Origin: Desulfurellaceae bacterium
GTDB taxonomy: Bacteria > Desulfobacterota > Binatia > Bin18
DNA: 33,791 nucleotides
Assembly: GCA_021296095.1 (NCBI GenBank)
Contig: JAGWBB010000029.1
Coordinates: 1-33,791, forward strand
Direction of reading: 5' to 3'
This document shows positions 4,167 through 26,290 of this stretch, piece by piece. The number at the start of each line of letters is the position of its first letter. Position 1 is the first letter of the stretch. The notes beneath the pieces are model-generated. The model made no database searches. It had not been told where the DNA came from and was given only the letters and a program-made list of their open reading frames with translations. A program made the position numbers and the translations under genes.

Positions 4167-4907
4167 ATGGATCTGAGCGGAAAAACAGCCCTGGTGACGG
4201 GGTCGAGTTCGGGCATTGGACGGGGGATCGCCCTGGCCTTTGCCCAACAAGGTGCCAATGTCGTTATCACCGGTCGCAACCAGGAACGCATTGCCCAGGT
4301 TGTGCGCGAGGCCGAGGCCAGCGGCGGCAGAGCCGTGGGGCTCAGCGCCGATGTCGCCAGCTTCGGCGAGGTGCAGGCCATGGTCGAGCAGGCCCGGGCC
4401 GCGCTCGGTCCGATCGACATTCTGGTCAATAACGCCGGGGTGTTTGCCACCCGTCCGCTGCACGACATGACCGAGACCGAGTGGGACGACATGCTGGCCG
4501 TGGACCTCAAAAGCGTCTTCAACTGCACGCGGGCCGTGATCGACGACATGCGCGCCAGCGGCTGGGGACGCATCGTCTGTATTACAGGCCTGGTCGGCAA
4601 TGTGGGCTATGCCAACACTGCCCATGTGGCTGCGGCCAAAGCCGGGGTGCACGGCTTTGTCAGAGCCCTGGCGCGTGAGGCCATTGACGCGGGGATTACG
4701 GTCAACGCGATTACGCCGGGGCTGATCGACACGCCCATCCTGGCCGGCATCAGCGAGGCCCAGATGGCGGTCTTTACCCAGGAAATTCCGGCCGGCCGGA
4801 TTGGCACGGTCGAAGAGATCGCGGCCGCAACTGTGTATTTCAGCTCGGACGCCGCAGCCTATACCACCGGGCAAATCCTGAATATCAGTGGCGGCGGAGT
4901 GGTATAA
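4167..4907 (+). CDS. SDR-family protein with an altered catalytic tetrad
   Basis: This 246-residue SDR has a normal cofactor-binding part: TGSSSGIGRG at residues 11-20, NNAG at 88-91, and TGQILNISGGGVV at the end. The catalytic tetrad is changed. The Asn position is Asp113 (AVDLKS), the Ser position is Gly141 (CITGLVG), the Tyr position is Val154 (AHVAAAK), and only Lys158 remains. I checked the codons (GGC, GTG, AAA) directly. It may therefore be non-catalytic (binding or regulatory) or use different chemistry. The start follows AAAAAGGAGG. It is followed after 29 bp by an LLM oxidoreductase on the same strand, so the pair is probably an operon. Confidence 0.9.
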   Translation: MDLSGKTALVTGSSSGIGRGIALAFAQQGANVVITGRNQERIAQVVREAEASGGRAVGLSADVASFGEVQAMVEQARAALGPIDILVNNAGVFATRPLHDMTETEWDDMLAVDLKSVFNCTRAVIDDMRASGWGRIVCITGLVGNVGYANTAHVAAAKAGVHGFVRALAREAIDAGITVNAITPGLIDTPILAGISEAQMAVFTQEIPAGRIGTVEEIAAATVYFSSDAAAYTTGQILNISGGGVV

Positions 4908-14726: not shown

Positions 14727-16843
<2,117 letters not shown>

Positions 16844-16867
16844 CGCGCGGGCGGGGCCAGACCGCCC

Positions 16868-18073
16868 TCACGCCTCCCCCCTCCACTTTTTCTGTTGCAG
16901 AGGCCGCAGCCTGTCCTCTCCTGTCCCCAGCTTGAGTTCACTGTCCTGCTGGAGCCAGTCAATCGTCTGATCGACCTGATCGCGCTCCCGCTCAAGAAAG
17001 CGGTTCACCGCTGCGGCAAAACGCGGCTCGACCATGAAGTGCATGCTGATCGTCGGTTGGGGATCAAAGCCGCGCAGGCGCTTGAAGTCACCGCCCGCGC
17101 CGGGCTCGAAGCGCACGATGCCGTTCTGGATACAGTGGGCAATCGCCGCGTAGTAGCAGACGTTGAAGTGCAGATGGCGCAGCTCGCGAAAACAGCCCCA
17201 ATAGCGGCCGTACAGCACCCCGCTCTTCTGGACGTTGATTGTGCCGGCGATGACTTCGCCCTGGTAACGGGCCACCACAAAGCACAGATTCTGGCGAAAC
17301 CGCTCGGCCAGCAAATCGAAAAACTCCGAGCGCAGGTATTGGCGGCCCCAGTACAGCTTGTCAATATGAGCTTTGTACAGCCGGTACATATAGGGGAACA
17401 ACTCGTCCGTGATCTCCTCGCCGGTGTGAGCCTCAATCGTCACCCCGAGCTGATCCATTTCGCGCATTTCGCGTTTGATCTGATTCCGGCGCTTATTGCG
17501 GAAATGAGCCAGATAATCGTCGAAGGTCTCGTAGGCGTAGTTCAGCCACTGGTACTGCAAGCCCATCCGTTTGAGGTAGCCGATCTCGGCCAGGGCCTCG
17601 GCCTCATCCGGCAGACAAAAATTGACGTGGACCGAAGAGAATTCGTTTTGCTGGCAGATCTCCTGCAGGGTCTTGCCCAGCAGCTGGATGAGGGCTCGCC
17701 GGTCGCTGCCCGCAGCGGTCAGAAAACGGATGCCCGTGGCCGGAGTAAACGGCGCCGCGACCAACATCTTGGGATAGTACTCAATGCCCGCCCGGTGGGC
17801 GGCGTCGGCCCAGCCATGGTCAAAGACAAACTCGCCCATGCTGTGCCCCTTGAGATACAGGGGGCAGGCGGCAACCAGCCGCTGGTCCTCGTAGACGACC
17901 AGATGCTGGGGCTGCCAGCCGGTCTTGGGCACCACACAGCGCGACTCTTCCATGCTCGACAGCCAGCCCCATTCGAGAAAAGGCGACTCAGCACCGACGA
18001 GATCGTCCCACTCGGCCGGGTCGACCTCCTGGAGACTGTCCATCACTTTGACTTGCAGCATAGCGGCGGGCAT
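16868..18073 (-). CDS. GNAT-superfamily FemAB-like protein (DUF482/PF04339 type)
   Basis: The 401-residue product matches the peptidogalycan-biosynthesis type of acetyltransferase-like proteins: ESPFLEWGWLSSMEESRC, PLYLKGHSMGEFVFDHGWADAAHRAG, YYPKMLVAAPFTPATGIRF and KRRNQIKREMREM. The signature GTINVQKSGVLYGRYWG and FEPGAGGDFKRLRGFDP close the C-terminal half. The second GNAT-like half probably transfers an aminoacyl or acyl group; its true substrate is unknown. The start is uncertain. GTG 18082 and ATG 18073 are both in frame, and GAAGGG sits 11 bases before 18073. It is divergent from the RNB gene with 38 bp between them. Confidence 0.88.
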   Translation of the reverse strand: MPAAMLQVKVMDSLQEVDPAEWDDLVGAESPFLEWGWLSSMEESRCVVPKTGWQPQHLVVYEDQRLVAACPLYLKGHSMGEFVFDHGWADAAHRAGIEYYPKMLVAAPFTPATGIRFLTAAGSDRRALIQLLGKTLQEICQQNEFSSVHVNFCLPDEAEALAEIGYLKRMGLQYQWLNYAYETFDDYLAHFRNKRRNQIKREMREMDQLGVTIEAHTGEEITDELFPYMYRLYKAHIDKLYWGRQYLRSEFFDLLAERFRQNLCFVVARYQGEVIAGTINVQKSGVLYGRYWGCFRELRHLHFNVCYYAAIAHCIQNGIVRFEPGAGGDFKRLRGFDPQPTISMHFMVEPRFAAAVNRFLERERDQVDQTIDWLQQDSELKLGTGEDRLRPLQQKKWRGEA

Positions 18074-18111
18074 AGTGTACACAACCCTTCAGCGGTCATT
18101 CGTTACGTACT

Positions 18112-20163
18112 ATGCAGATTGGAACCGTCATTGTCTACCGTGAGCGCGGCCGCTTGGCCCTGGGAGCGATTACCACGCCCCCGTCAAAGACCAGCAAGGG
18201 CAAGACCCAGGTCGAAATTGTGGGCGAGGATGGCAAAAAGTCCGTCCTCATCCCGGACCGCATCGTCCTGGACTGTGCCCAGACGGTGTCGCCCAGCCAG
18301 CCGCCGGCAGCCCTCAAAAAACACTTTCAGGAGCTGCGCCAGCAGGTCGTGCGCTCGGCCCAGCGCCTCGACCTCAGAGAGCTGTGGGAGCTGCTCCAGG
18401 GCGAGGACACCGGCACGTTTTCGTGGCAGGAGCTGGCCGCCTTCGTGGTGTCCGGCGATGATCGGCTGGCCATGGCCGGGGTCTTGGACGCGCTGTGGAA
18501 TGAGGGCGTGTATTTCAAAGAAAAGCAGCTCGGTGAGTTTGTCCTGCGCGATGCCAAGAGCGTGGAGGAGCTGCTGCATCAACAGGCCGTGGAACGCCAG
18601 CGGGTGCGCGCTCAGGCCGAGTTTGTGGCCTGGGTGCAGACCGCCCAGACACAAGCCGGAAGCCTGGAGCGGCCGGACGGCAGCGAGCGCTTTCTCGCCC
18701 TGCTCACCGGGCTGGCCCTGCACGGCGAGAATTATGACAAAAAGTCCCCAGCCCTCAAACTCCTGGCCGAGACCGGCTTTCGGGCCAAGGGTCATCCCTG
18801 GGATGTGGCCTTCCAGCTCCTGGTCGCCCTCGGCGTCTGGGACACCGAGGAAGAACTGAGCCTGCTGCGCTACGACATCCCGACCCGGTTTTCAGACGAG
18901 GTTCTTGCTGCGGCCGAGGCCGTGCCGGCCTTTCCGCCCGGCCAACCGGGCTATCAGGACCTGCGATCCCTGCTGACCTTTACCATCGACGACGCCGAGA
19001 CCAGCGATATTGACGACGCCCTCAGCCTGAGCGAAGAAGACGGCAGACTTCTGATCGGGGTGCATATCACCGACGCCGGCTTTTTTGTCCCGCCCGGCGG
19101 CACAATCGACCGCGCCGCCCTGCAGCGCGGCACCACGGTCTATCTACCCCGCCTGACCCTGCCCATGCTGCCGCCGACCCTCAGCCAGCAGACCGCCAGC
19201 CTGGTTGCCGGACAAGACCGGCCGGTGCTGAGTTTTTTCGCCAGCCTGGACGAGCGTGGCCAGCTGCGCGTCGAGCGTATCTGCCGCAGCGTGATTCGGG
19301 TGGCTCGGCGGCTGACCTATGCCGAGGCCGACGCCCTGCTGGAGACGGCGGGCGACGATCCGTACACCGCCGCCCTCCAGCAACTCAATACCGTGGCAGA
19401 GCGACGCCGTGCCCGACGGGTGGAAAACGGGGCGGTGATTATCGAGGGCAGCGAGGTCAAGGTCCGGGTCAGCGACAGCCCGACGGGCGACCCGCCCGAG
19501 ATCACGGTTGCGATCCTGGCCAACGACTCGCCGACTCGGCGGCTGGTCGGCGAATGCATGATTCTGGCCAACGAGATTGCCGCCCGCTACTGCCAACGCC
19601 ATGACCTGCCGGCCTTGTATATCGGCCAGCCACCGCCCGATGAGGCGGTCCCCAGCCCCGACCAGTGTCCCAGCCAGCAGGTGTACATCCATGCCGCCCG
19701 GCGCTTGATGAAGCCCGCCCAGCGGGGGACGCTGCCCGTCTCGCACAGCGCCCTGGGGCTGGACAGCTACACCCAGGTCACCTCTCCGCTGCGGCGTTAC
19801 CACGACCTGCAGATGCATCACCAGATCAAGCATCACCTCGCCCACGGCAGCGCCCTGTTTGACGAGGAACGCCTCCAGCTCGTCGCCGCCGGAGCCCAGG
19901 AGTCGAGCGTGGCCGCCAAACGCTGTGAGCGGGAGAGCACCCGCTACTGGCTACTGCGCTGCCTGGAAACCCGGACCGGCCAACAGGTCGACGCCCAGGT
20001 CGTGCGGGAATGGCGCGGTCGCTCCTTTGTCGAGTTGGAAGATACGCTGCTGGTCGTGCCGATGAATCTGTCGCCCCGCCCCCGGCTGGGCACCAGGCTG
20101 CGGGTCACCATCGGTCAGGTGGACGCCCGGCGGGATACGCTGAGCGTGCGCCTCACCACATGA
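18112..20163 (+). CDS. RNB-domain exoribonuclease (RNase II/R family)
   Basis: The 683-residue product contains the RNB catalytic core. FTIDDAETSDIDDALS at about residues 290-305 carries the metal-binding Asp cluster, followed by GVHITDAGFFVPPGG and RGTTVYLPRLTLPMLPPTLS. Further on are RRLTYAEAD and TQVTSPLRRYHDL. The C-terminus (REWRGRSFVELEDTLLVVPM, RVTIGQVDARRDTLSVRL) is a short S1-like OB fold. The N-terminus (QIGTVIVYRERGRLALGAI) is a compact beta domain rather than full cold-shock domains, so it is a short-type enzyme like those of cyanobacteria. It degrades RNA 3' to 5'. Its end overlaps the convergent SDR by 11 bp. Confidence 0.93.
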   Translation: MQIGTVIVYRERGRLALGAITTPPSKTSKGKTQVEIVGEDGKKSVLIPDRIVLDCAQTVSPSQPPAALKKHFQELRQQVVRSAQRLDLRELWELLQGEDTGTFSWQELAAFVVSGDDRLAMAGVLDALWNEGVYFKEKQLGEFVLRDAKSVEELLHQQAVERQRVRAQAEFVAWVQTAQTQAGSLERPDGSERFLALLTGLALHGENYDKKSPALKLLAETGFRAKGHPWDVAFQLLVALGVWDTEEELSLLRYDIPTRFSDEVLAAAEAVPAFPPGQPGYQDLRSLLTFTIDDAETSDIDDALSLSEEDGRLLIGVHITDAGFFVPPGGTIDRAALQRGTTVYLPRLTLPMLPPTLSQQTASLVAGQDRPVLSFFASLDERGQLRVERICRSVIRVARRLTYAEADALLETAGDDPYTAALQQLNTVAERRRARRVENGAVIIEGSEVKVRVSDSPTGDPPEITVAILANDSPTRRLVGECMILANEIAARYCQRHDLPALYIGQPPPDEAVPSPDQCPSQQVYIHAARRLMKPAQRGTLPVSHSALGLDSYTQVTSPLRRYHDLQMHHQIKHHLAHGSALFDEERLQLVAAGAQESSVAAKRCERESTRYWLLRCLETRTGQQVDAQVVREWRGRSFVELEDTLLVVPMNLSPRPRLGTRLRVTIGQVDARRDTLSVRLTT

Positions 20164-20965
20164 CCACACCGCCGTCGATGTTCAGCGACTGGCCGGTGAT
20201 GTAAGACGCGTCAGGGGTACACAGATAGGCGATAAATCTGCCGACTTCCTCGTCGGTACCGGCCCGCTTGAGCGGAATCAACTGCTGGATCGTCGCTTCC
20301 CAGCGTTCTTCGCGACCCAGATCGTCCATGCGTGAGGTATCGATCACGCCCGGACACACCGCGTTGACGCGGATCTGGTGCGGGGCCAGCTCCATGGCCA
20401 GGGCCTGGCTGAAGCCCTGGATGCCAGCGTTTGAGGTGCAATAGGCGACCGTATTCGGCATGCCACGCTTGCCCGCAATAGACGAGATATTGACGATGCT
20501 GCCGCCCTGGGCCTGGCTGATCAGGTGCGGGACCACGGCCTGACTCATCAAAAAGCTGCCCGTCAGCTTGATCTCAAGCACCTGACGCCACAGCTGCTCG
20601 GACAGCTCGGTCAGCGCCACCCGGTCCGGTCCCCGGGCGGTGGCGGCATTATTGATCAGGATATCGATCCGACCCAAGGCCGAGAGCGTCTCTTCGACCG
20701 TCCGTTGGACATCGGCGCTGTCGGCAATATTGGCGACCAGCGGCACACAGCGCCGTCCCCGCTCGCGGACCTGATCGGCCACGCTGTCAATATCGCGCCA
20801 GCCAACCGCTTTCTCGTCATCCGGGTAGCGGGACGGATCACGACCGGTGCCGGTCACCACCAGGTCGGCACCCAGGTCGGCCAGGGCCACTGCGGCCGCC
20901 CGGCCAATGCCGCGCAGGCGTCCGGCGCCGGTGACAATTGCGACTTTTCCATCCAGTGCGCCCAT
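20153..20965 (-). CDS. SDR-family protein with swapped Asn/Lys in the catalytic tetrad
   Basis: The 270-residue product has the SDR cofactor start VTGAGRLRGIGR and NNA. The tetrad is unusual. Lys133 (LEIKLTG) stands at the Asn position, Ser162 (NISSIAG) and Tyr175 are normal, and Asn179 (YCTSN) stands at the Lys position. I checked the codons (AAG, AAC). This is a reciprocal swap, so an ordinary proton relay may still work with altered geometry; that is inference. The end is TGQSLNIDGGVVMW. The start at 20965 has GAGG five bases upstream; a TTG at 20980 is also in frame. It overlaps the RNB gene tail. Confidence 0.92.
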   Translation of the reverse strand: MGALDGKVAIVTGAGRLRGIGRAAAVALADLGADLVVTGTGRDPSRYPDDEKAVGWRDIDSVADQVRERGRRCVPLVANIADSADVQRTVEETLSALGRIDILINNAATARGPDRVALTELSEQLWRQVLEIKLTGSFLMSQAVVPHLISQAQGGSIVNISSIAGKRGMPNTVAYCTSNAGIQGFSQALAMELAPHQIRVNAVCPGVIDTSRMDDLGREERWEATIQQLIPLKRAGTDEEVGRFIAYLCTPDASYITGQSLNIDGGVVMW

Positions 20966-21000: not shown

Positions 21001-21741
21001 TCAGCCGGCCAGCTCGGCCGCAAACAGGGTCGTGACCCGCTGCCAGGCGTCGTCGGCCGCAGCCTGGTTGTACGATCCACGCTGGTCGCAGAAAAAGCCG
21101 TGCTCGGCGCCTGGATAGACCACGACCTCATGGGCGATGTTGTGCGTGTTCAGTTCGGCTCGAATGGCGTCCACCTGATCCAGTGGAATGGCCGCGTCCT
21201 TTTCGCCAAACAGACACACGATCCTGCCACCGATCTTGCCCGTCCGACTCAGGGTAGACGGCCCACCGCCAAAGCCCTGCGGCCCGGCAATCCCGCCGCC
21301 ATAAAAGCTGGCCGCAGCTTTGACTTCCGTCTCGCACGCCGTCAGATAGGTCATATGGCCGCCGACACAAAAGCCAATCGCCCCGAACCGGTCGCCCCCC
21401 ACATAGTTCTTACGCTTGAGAAACGAGAGGCTGGCCCGGGCGTCAGCGACCATTTCGTCGGCCTGGAGCTGGTTGAGCAGCTTGATACCCTCGGTTATGC
21501 CGGTCTCGTCATAGCCGTACTCCACGCCAGGTCCGGTGCGGTGGAAAAAATCCGGCGCCAGCGCGACATACCCCTCGGCCGCGACGCGCTCGGTGACCTC
21601 ACGAATGTGTGAGTTGACCCCAAAGATTTCCATAAACACCAGAACCGCAGGATACGTCCCCGGCGCGCTGGGCCGGGCCAGATAGGCGCCCATGGTCTGG
21701 GTATCAACGGTAACATTTGCGCGTTCGGTGGTAATCTCCAT
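21001..21741 (-). CDS. dienelactone hydrolase family protein
   Basis: The 246-residue alpha/beta hydrolase has the DLH catalytic set: Cys125 (GFCVGGH), Asp182 (GEKDAAIP), His214 (GAEHGF) and Glu38 (MEIFGVN). Dienelactone hydrolases open lactone rings late in chloroaromatic catabolism; many family members act on other carboxyl esters, so the substrate is open. The start at 21741 follows AGGAGGGACAGC. The 35-bp gap to the SDR start suggests a minus-strand run with it. It is divergent from the alpha/beta hydrolase at 21905. Confidence 0.92.
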   Translation of the reverse strand: MEITTERANVTVDTQTMGAYLARPSAPGTYPAVLVFMEIFGVNSHIREVTERVAAEGYVALAPDFFHRTGPGVEYGYDETGITEGIKLLNQLQADEMVADARASLSFLKRKNYVGGDRFGAIGFCVGGHMTYLTACETEVKAAASFYGGGIAGPQGFGGGPSTLSRTGKIGGRIVCLFGEKDAAIPLDQVDAIRAELNTHNIAHEVVVYPGAEHGFFCDQRGSYNQAAADDAWQRVTTLFAAELAG

Positions 21742-21837
21742 GCTGTCCCTCCTGAGAAAAATGCGGATAAGAATGTCGAACCGGCAGGCCCTTTTCTCAC
21801 ACTCTGCCGTGGCTGTGTCAAGACGTCCGGCGGCCGC

Positions 21838-21865
21838 TTGGCTTTGGCACAGGCGGTGTGATAAA
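21838..21865 (+). promoter_or_regulatory. weak candidate promoter for the alpha/beta hydrolase
   Basis: TTGGCT (21838-21843), 16 nt, GATAAA (21860-21865), 40 nt before the ATG at 21905. The boxes are only partial matches in a 163-bp divergent region. Confidence 0.3.
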
Positions 21866-21904
21866 GGAGGGGCACTTTTTTGGAGCCACAAGGAGGATTG
21901 GCGT

Positions 21905-22702
21905 ATGCCCCATATCCAGCGCAACGGCGTGAACGTGTACTATGAGAGCCACGGTCAGGGAACCCCGATCGTGTTTCTGCACCCCTTCTCGACCAACGGC
22001 AACATCTGGTACTTCCAGACCTATACCTTTGCCCAGGAGTATCAGTGCGTCACCATTGACCACCGCGGCCACGGCCGCTCGGACAAGCCTGAGCAGGGCT
22101 ATGCCATGGGCGAAATGGCGGCCGATGTGGCGGCCGTGCTCGACCAGCTCAAGATCGACACAGCCATCCTGGTCGGCAACTCGATCGGGGGCATGATCGC
22201 CATGCAGTTCAACCTGGACTTTCCCGACCGGGTCCTGGCCAATGTGATTGTCAGCAGCGGAACAAACATGTCGGCCGGCATGCCGCCCGAAGCCGGCCAA
22301 GCCTTTCAGGACGACCTCACCGGCGCCTTCAGCGGCCTGATGGAAGGCGCGGTGGCGGCCAAGACCAAGCGGGACCGGCCCGAGGTACTCGATCTGGTCA
22401 AGGCCAAGTTCATGGTGGACGACAATTTTCCCAAGCACGTCTTCTTTGCCTCGGCCAGCGATCCCAACGGGGTCTTTAACTGGAACATCTCGGAGCGGCT
22501 CAAGACCATCACCAAGCCGACCCAGATTTACGCCGGCAGAGAGGATCAGGCCACTACAGTCGAGGTCAATCAGTTCCTGGCCGATCATATCCCCAACGCC
22601 CAGATCAAGGTGATTGACGACGTGGGGCATTTCTATCAGCTCGAAAAACCGGCCGACTTTAACGCCGACCTGCGCGGTTTTCTGAAGCAGGTCGTGGCCT
22701 GA
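21905..22702 (+). CDS. alpha/beta-fold hydrolase
   Basis: The 265-residue product has the catalytic triad Ser93 (GNSIGGM), Asp214 (AGREDQA) and His242 (DVGHFYQLEKP), with oxyanion residues near HPFSTNG and DHRGHGRSD. It resembles 3-oxoadipate enol-lactonase-like and ester hydrolases, which act on soluble esters or C-C bonds. The substrate is unknown. The start at 21905 follows AAGGAGGATTGGCGT. A strong hairpin terminator lies 26 bp after the stop. Confidence 0.92.
   Translation: MPHIQRNGVNVYYESHGQGTPIVFLHPFSTNGNIWYFQTYTFAQEYQCVTIDHRGHGRSDKPEQGYAMGEMAADVAAVLDQLKIDTAILVGNSIGGMIAMQFNLDFPDRVLANVIVSSGTNMSAGMPPEAGQAFQDDLTGAFSGLMEGAVAAKTKRDRPEVLDLVKAKFMVDDNFPKHVFFASASDPNGVFNWNISERLKTITKPTQIYAGREDQATTVEVNQFLADHIPNAQIKVIDDVGHFYQLEKPADFNADLRGFLKQVVA

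Positions 22703-24679: not shown

Positions 24680-26290
<1,611 letters not shown>

What the first reader, a model, noticed from the sequence alone, without database searches (positions are those of the whole stretch)
20153..20965. SDR with a reciprocal Asn/Lys swap in its catalytic tetrad
Lys133 occupies the Asn position (LEIKLTG), and Asn179 occupies the Lys position of YxxxK (YCTSN). Ser162 and Tyr175 are intact. The codons AAG and AAC were read directly. In classical SDRs these residues form one proton relay, so a matched exchange suggests a compensated, still active enzyme rather than decay.
Basis: partly seen in the sequence, partly recalled or inferred. Interest (0 to 1): 0.6.

Follow-up and report, generated by a model that had tools for sequence, protein, structure and literature searches.

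The report
Enzyme with two catalytic residues swapped
A bacterial oxidoreductase of a very common type carries two of its catalytic residues in exchanged positions, as polyketide-making enzymes do, and the exchange seems to have arisen more than once in this free-standing family, always keeping one lysine.

Summary
The gene is on the minus strand (20153-20965, 270 aa): Lys133 (AAG), Ser162, Tyr175 and Asn179 (AAC) sit at the canonical Asn, Ser, Tyr and Lys tetrad sites. It is a conserved family trait, not decay. Of 257 distinct homologs, 80 have Lys133 (74 KSYN, 6 KSYC) and none of these has Lys179; the other 177 all have Lys179. It is fixed in 12 of 12 full-length family-level orthologs, median dN/dS 0.08. 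With both trait columns removed, trees need three changes and a single swap clade is rejected (AU p about 0.01). L221/L222 are swapped although their nearest relatives (62-63%) are canonical, and recombination is not supported. The exchange is not unprecedented: KR domains of polyketide synthases have the same arrangement (3 of 3 tested), and YxxxN is the literature motif of complex SDRs. Our protein is nevertheless FabG-like (PF13561 204 bits, KR 47), so I read it as convergence. Likely mechanism: Lys133 serves Tyr175 and the NADP(H) ribose from the neighbouring helix. Activity, substrate and atomic contacts are untested.

The parts
20153..20965 (-). Free-standing classical-type SDR (270 aa, P0001) with tetrad Lys133-Ser162-Tyr175-Asn179
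   Evidence: translation; Pfam PF13561 204 bits; AlphaFold2 model pLDDT 94.4, pTM 0.93; FabG structures Z up to 38.2
20567..20569 (-). Codon AAG, Lys133, at the canonical tetrad Asn position (helix 123-151)
20480..20482 (-). Ser162 codon (canonical)
20441..20443 (-). Tyr175 codon TAT (canonical catalytic Tyr)
20429..20431 (-). Codon AAC, Asn179, at the canonical YxxxK Lys position (helix 173-196)
21001..21924 (-). Dienelactone-hydrolase family gene directly upstream, same strand (start codon uncertain); a homolog sits 39-110 bp upstream of the swapped SDR in 11 of 12 family-level orthologs
   Evidence: PF01738 193.2 bits; conserved neighbour

Best explanation
This is an active NAD(P)(H)-dependent classical-type SDR whose catalytic Lys has moved from helix alphaF (YxxxK) to the adjacent tetrad Asn site on helix alphaE, while Asn has moved to the old Lys site. 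Shown: the residues, their tight coupling across homologs, purifying selection, a confident SDR fold with intact cofactor motifs, and tree evidence for at least two independent origins of the exchange within the family. Inferred: the amine of Lys133 enters the space next to Tyr175 and the nicotinamide ribose that Lys179 normally fills, lowers the Tyr pKa and carries the proton relay; the smaller Asn179 leaves room for it and orients the relay as the tetrad Asn does. This is the arrangement described for KR domains of type I polyketide and animal fatty-acid synthases, reached here by convergence. Inferred and weaker: it reduces or oxidises a carbonyl/alcohol in a catabolic step next to a dienelactone-hydrolase-type enzyme, and prefers NADP(H).
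For: Codons and alignment. Coupling: K133 with K179 in 0 of 257, N133 with N179 in 0 of 257, exactly one Lys in 257 of 257. Independent origins: trees without the two columns need 3 changes, 0% of 200 bootstrap trees have one change, AU p = 0.0115 with all swapped rows and 0.0095 without L216/L240. The 12 best relatives of L221 outside its own lineage are all NSYK at 59-63%, and the stretch between the two sites is also closest to NSYK relatives. Selection: median dN/dS 0.08. Fold: pLDDT 94.4, FabG structures Z 36-38. KR precedent: 3 of 3 KR domains from related genomes have Lys and Asn at the same sites; EryKR1 Lys1776 stays near Tyr1813 in simulation (PMC3422181, passages); KR Lys lowers the Tyr pKa, with a conserved Asn (PMC3962154, passages); YxxxN marks complex SDRs (PMC3144213, passages; PMC7159223, passages). 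Not a KR family member: PF13561 204 bits against KR 46.7. Neighbourhood.
Against: No activity, substrate or cofactor data. Cys replaces Asn179 in 6 of 80, so Asn at that site is dispensable or the role differs there. Two rows at the base of the main clade have Asp133 with Lys179 (DSYK, DGYK), a one-sided change. A third swap lineage (L216/L240) is placed differently by the two trees. One more distant SDR of the same genome has no Lys at either site (NSYQ).
Confidence: 0.74

Rival explanations
1. The swap marks a change of chemistry: the protein binds the dinucleotide but is no longer a normal oxidoreductase (a lyase- or isomerase-like enzyme, or a non-catalytic subunit paired with an active paralog).
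For: Halohydrin dehalogenases show that SDRs can change chemistry when the Lys site changes (recalled, no call). Tandem paralogs occur in L028 (three KSYN copies) and L029 (KSYN plus KSYC), which would suit hetero-oligomers. Another SDR of the same genome, L293, has Lys and Asn at these sites but lacks both Ser and Tyr.
Against: Ser162 and Tyr175 are kept in all 80 Lys133 homologs. Cofactor motifs are intact. No second copy of the family stands beside the gene in the window. PKS KRs with the same arrangement reduce ketones.
Confidence: 0.13
2. One single origin of the swap, followed by reversion to the canonical tetrad, or a wrong tree, or transfer of the swapped segment into the L221/L222 lineage by recombination.
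For: The place of L216/L240 is unstable between trees, and an AU p of about 0.01 is not extreme. Asn and Lys codons differ by one third-position change, so reversions are easy (genetic code).
Against: The stretch between the two sites, and residues 121-190 without them, are closest to canonical relatives in L221 and L222. Well-supported branches force at least 2 changes. L221 matches the canonical group at 46 and the swapped group at 16 of 93 discriminating positions, 31 neither.
Confidence: 0.12
3. Ordinary degenerate SDR: a neutral double substitution in a gene on its way out.
For: SDRs with broken tetrads exist in the same genome; one related genome carries the gene in two pieces (L019/L047/L105).
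Against: dN/dS of 0.03-0.11 in the 15 closest pairs; fixation in 12 of 12 full-length family-level rows; spread over several phyla; no combination with zero or two Lys among 257.
Confidence: 0.02

Closest known systems
Ketoreductase (KR) domains of type I polyketide and animal fatty-acid synthases (complex SDRs, YxxxN)
   Same: Lys at the tetrad Asn site and Asn at the YxxxK Lys site; 3 of 3 KRs from related genomes align so, e.g. VLHPKMTGSWLL and YAAANAF against VLEIKLTGSFLM and YCTSNAG
   Different: Here a free-standing 270-aa FabG-like protein with TGx5GIG and NNAA motifs, matching PF13561 far better than KR PF08659 (204 against 46.7 bits); relatives at 50-57% identity include many with the canonical tetrad
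FabG / glucose 1-dehydrogenase type classical SDRs (PF13561)
   Same: Fold (Z 36-38 to FabG), length, cofactor motifs, Ser and Tyr; 36-39% identity to the FabG rows at the top
   Different: Lys and Asn of the tetrad exchanged; 2-residue insert in the glycine motif and an extra loop with YPDDEKAVGWRD after the second strand
Canonical NSYK sister group (e.g. L036, L041, L123, L017)
   Same: 50-57% identity, same YPDDEK loop and glycine-motif insert
   Different: Normal N-S-Y-K tetrad; mostly NNAG where the swapped lineages have NNAA
Mycofactocin-coupled SDRs (TIGR03971)
   Same: Comparable overall score (204.9 bits) and, in L075 of A1, a loop after the second strand (that L075 is such an SDR was not tested)
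   Different: Below the curated cut-off of 300 bits

Membership tests
Classical SDR (PF13561 adh_short_C2) | Curated Pfam score | tested here: met
   204 bits against cut-off 27
Classical SDR (PF13561 adh_short_C2) | Rossmann fold of FabG type | tested here: met
   AF2 pLDDT 94.4; 2uvd_A Z 38.2, rmsd 1.4 over 246
Classical SDR (PF13561 adh_short_C2) | YxxxK active-site motif with tetrad Asn | tested here: not met
   YCTSN and LEIKLTG; so it belongs to the classical SDRs by fold and sequence group, but is not one with the classical active-site motif
Complex SDR / PKS-FAS KR domain | YxxxN with Lys at the tetrad Asn site | tested here: met
   Same columns in the KR domains L329, L330, L331; motif per PMC3144213 and PMC7159223 (passages)
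Complex SDR / PKS-FAS KR domain | Best match to the KR family PF08659 | tested here: not met
   46.7 bits against 204 for PF13561
Complex SDR / PKS-FAS KR domain | Part of a multidomain synthase | tested here: not met
   Stand-alone 270-aa frame; neighbours are hydrolase and RNase-type genes
Mycofactocin-coupled SDR (TIGR03971) | Curated score | tested here: not met
   204.9 against cut-off 300
Any named NCBIfam family | Score over the curated cut-off | tested here: inconclusive
   None of the 25 best of 228 families reached its cut-off; the nearest, NF005559 glucose 1-dehydrogenase subfamily, missed it by 0.4 bits (214.6 against 215); the other 203 were not shown

The most novel reading that the evidence does not exclude
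Within one free-standing SDR family the catalytic Lys and Asn have exchanged places at least twice, and perhaps three times, independently, reaching the arrangement long fixed in PKS/FAS ketoreductases.
Probability: 0.55. Interest if true: 0.6.

Novelty: new variant of a known kind. Interest (0 to 1): 0.46.

Why it matters
YxxxK is widely used to call SDRs active or inactive; a stand-alone family with YxxxN could be wrongly written off as dead. The repeated, coupled exchange gives a natural test of what the tetrad Asn and Lys do, and of how the KR arrangement could evolve from a FabG-like ancestor. No curated NCBIfam name applied among the best 25 matches.

Tried and rejected
Considered and rejected: (1) misalignment, by the PDB alignments and family alignments; (2) frame or start error, since the frame is open under table 11 from an ATG with a Shine-Dalgarno-like site; (3) a displaced PKS KR domain, by Pfam and by 50-57% identity to canonical stand-alone relatives; (4) decay, by dN/dS; (5) recombination as the source of the L221 swap.

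Led nowhere: paper searches found nothing, 63 and 68 one off-topic paper each. In the ten searches, which cover only open-licence PubMed Central papers, I saw no paper in the listings on a stand-alone bacterial FabG-like SDR with both sites exchanged; I read passages of eleven papers only (ten calls, ten papers). I recall that Reid et al. 2003 and Keatinge-Clay and Stroud 2006 described the KR exchange; I read neither. No KR structure appears among the 50 rows shown, which says nothing about fold differences. The model's coordinates were not in the Python box, so no distances.

Rows dropped before the 257 count: matches with fewer than 236 aligned query residues, matches with a stop, and exact duplicate translations; this leaves out the split gene (L019/L047/L105) and short fragments such as L051. 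One search drew 393 genomes and scored at most 6 candidates per genome; 80 of its matches without loci were fetched, not all. Tree rows were thinned at 88% identity, with distant rows hand-picked (132 rows), then to a hand-picked 75. One search counts rows of 45% identity or more: 78 swapped, 74 not.

Full report
What is there. The SDR is on the minus strand, 20153-20965, 270 aa. Its tetrad sites are Lys133 (AAG), Ser162, Tyr175 and Asn179 (AAC), read from the minus-strand sequence. In alignments to solved FabG-type proteins Lys133 lies over the tetrad Asn and Asn179 over the Lys of YxxxK. The protein matches PF13561 with 204 bits and PF00106 with 166.6, but the KR domain PF08659 with only 46.7. 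None of the 25 best NCBIfam families reached its curated cut-off, though NF005559 missed it by 0.4 bits.

How widespread. The window's genome (G000, 185 contigs, 4.3 Mb) is unnamed; the closest named records with this gene are MAGs called Candidatus Binatia, Binatota, Desulfurellaceae or Proteobacteria. Relatives of the protein were collected from that group, Rokubacteria, Chloroflexota and Gammaproteobacteria. From 266 loci, 257 distinct near-full-length homologs gave these tetrads: NSYK 152, KSYN 74, NSFK 8, CSYK 8, KSYC 6, DSYK 4, NTYK 2, and one each of DGYK, AGVK and ISYK. Thus 80 of 257 have Lys133 and none of these has Lys179, while 177 of 257 lack Lys133 and all have Lys179. At 70% identity or more, 12 of 12 are KSYN. 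Of the genome's own SDR places that I read (63 rows, three of them repeats of window places) only one is KSYN. Two more rows have Lys133 (KHTR and KGGN), again without Lys179, and one row (NSYQ) has no Lys at either site; that last row is an exception to the one-Lys pattern outside the near family.

How often it arose. Trees were built with both trait columns removed; for the careful tree the removal was checked. The quick tree of 132 rows and the careful tree of 75 rows each need 3 changes of the swap label, with at least 2 forced by well-supported branches, and 0% of 200 bootstrap trees have a single change. Holding all swapped rows as one clade costs 54 log units, AU p = 0.0115; without L216/L240 p = 0.0095. 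The clearest second origin is L221/L222, with L326 as a further, partial member: the nearest relatives outside the lineage are all canonical, at 59-63% identity. Segment by segment, including the stretch between the two sites, L221 and L222 stay closest to canonical sequences, so a transplanted segment is not supported. The third lineage (L216, L240, L237, L244) moves between trees and is left open. At the base of the main clade stand two Asp133/Lys179 proteins of one genome (L154, L190). Gly108 of the NNAG motif is Ala in nearly all swapped rows (main group 73 Ala and 1 Ser of 74, Ala in both rows of the second and all four of the third lineage) but Gly in 42 of 72 canonical rows; it may be permissive. 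Lys and Asn codons differ by one third-position change (genetic code), so the exchange is mutationally cheap.

Is it alive? Among 12 orthologs, dN/dS had a median of 0.08 over the 58 of 66 pairs with finite dS; the Lys codon is AAG or AAA and the Asn codon AAC or AAT, so the residues are kept while the codons drift. The model is confident (pLDDT 94.4, pTM 0.93), with Lys133 in helix 123-151 and Asn179 in helix 173-196, and superposes on FabG structures at Z 36-38.

Mechanism. In classical SDRs the Lys binds the cofactor and lowers the Tyr pKa, and the Asn holds, through a water, the Lys and the proton relay (PMC4635001 and PMC10864336, passages seen). In PKS KRs a Lys that precedes the Ser and Tyr in sequence does this (EryKR1 Lys1776, Ser1800, Tyr1813: PMC3422181, passages; metazoan FAS Lys1988, Ser2014, Tyr2027: PMC12856111, passages), with a conserved Asn (PMC3962154, passages). 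YxxxN is named as the complex-SDR motif (PMC3144213, passages, citing Kavanagh 2008) and is said to separate even stand-alone PKS KRs from classical SDRs (PMC7159223, passages). I tested the correspondence: KR domains found in three of 15 related genomes all carry Lys and Asn in these columns (L330; L329 and L331; L329 has His in place of the Tyr). So the exchange works like the KR arrangement, but the protein is not a KR family member; convergence is my inference from the tree and from Pfam.

Role. A dienelactone-hydrolase family gene lies 39-110 bp upstream on the same strand in 11 of 12 family-level orthologs, and another alpha/beta hydrolase lies upstream in 6 further swapped loci, so 17 of 78 swapped rows in all, against 1 of 74 non-swapped rows. 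Families were assigned. This suggests a catabolic carbonyl/alcohol step beside ester or lactone hydrolysis; it is a guess. The lack of an acidic residue at the end of the second strand (VVTGTGR) hints at NADP(H), from general SDR knowledge.

Verdict.

Noticed in passing
window 4173-4901 (+): Another SDR in the window has tetrad D-G-V-K: Ser and Tyr are both lost, next to luciferase-like monooxygenase genes; perhaps a non-catalytic SDR.
   Followed up: no
L293 (G000:C10:10900-12050): An SDR of the same genome with Lys and Asn at the swapped sites but Gly in place of both Ser and Tyr (KGGN).
   Followed up: no
L028:5097-7708 and L029:3315-5948: Tandem copies of the swapped SDR (three KSYN; one KSYN plus one KSYC) in Chloroflexota, possibly hetero-oligomer subunits.
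   Followed up: partly
L019 and L105 (G014:C115), L047: The ortholog of one relative is split in two pieces about 100 bases apart: a broken gene or an assembly fault.
   Followed up: no
L328 (G171:C2:27594-28379): A second, NSYK-side copy carrying an internal TGA stop and a disturbed YxxxK region.
   Followed up: no
L329:1486-2022 (-): A type I PKS KR domain with His where the catalytic Tyr should be (HAAAN).
   Followed up: no
window 24680-26290 (+): One protein matches SpoIIIAA, phosphotyrosine-phosphatase-like and R3H domain models in turn.
   Followed up: no
window 16808-18859 (+) and others: Long antisense open frames opposite real genes, as expected in GC-rich DNA.
   Followed up: no
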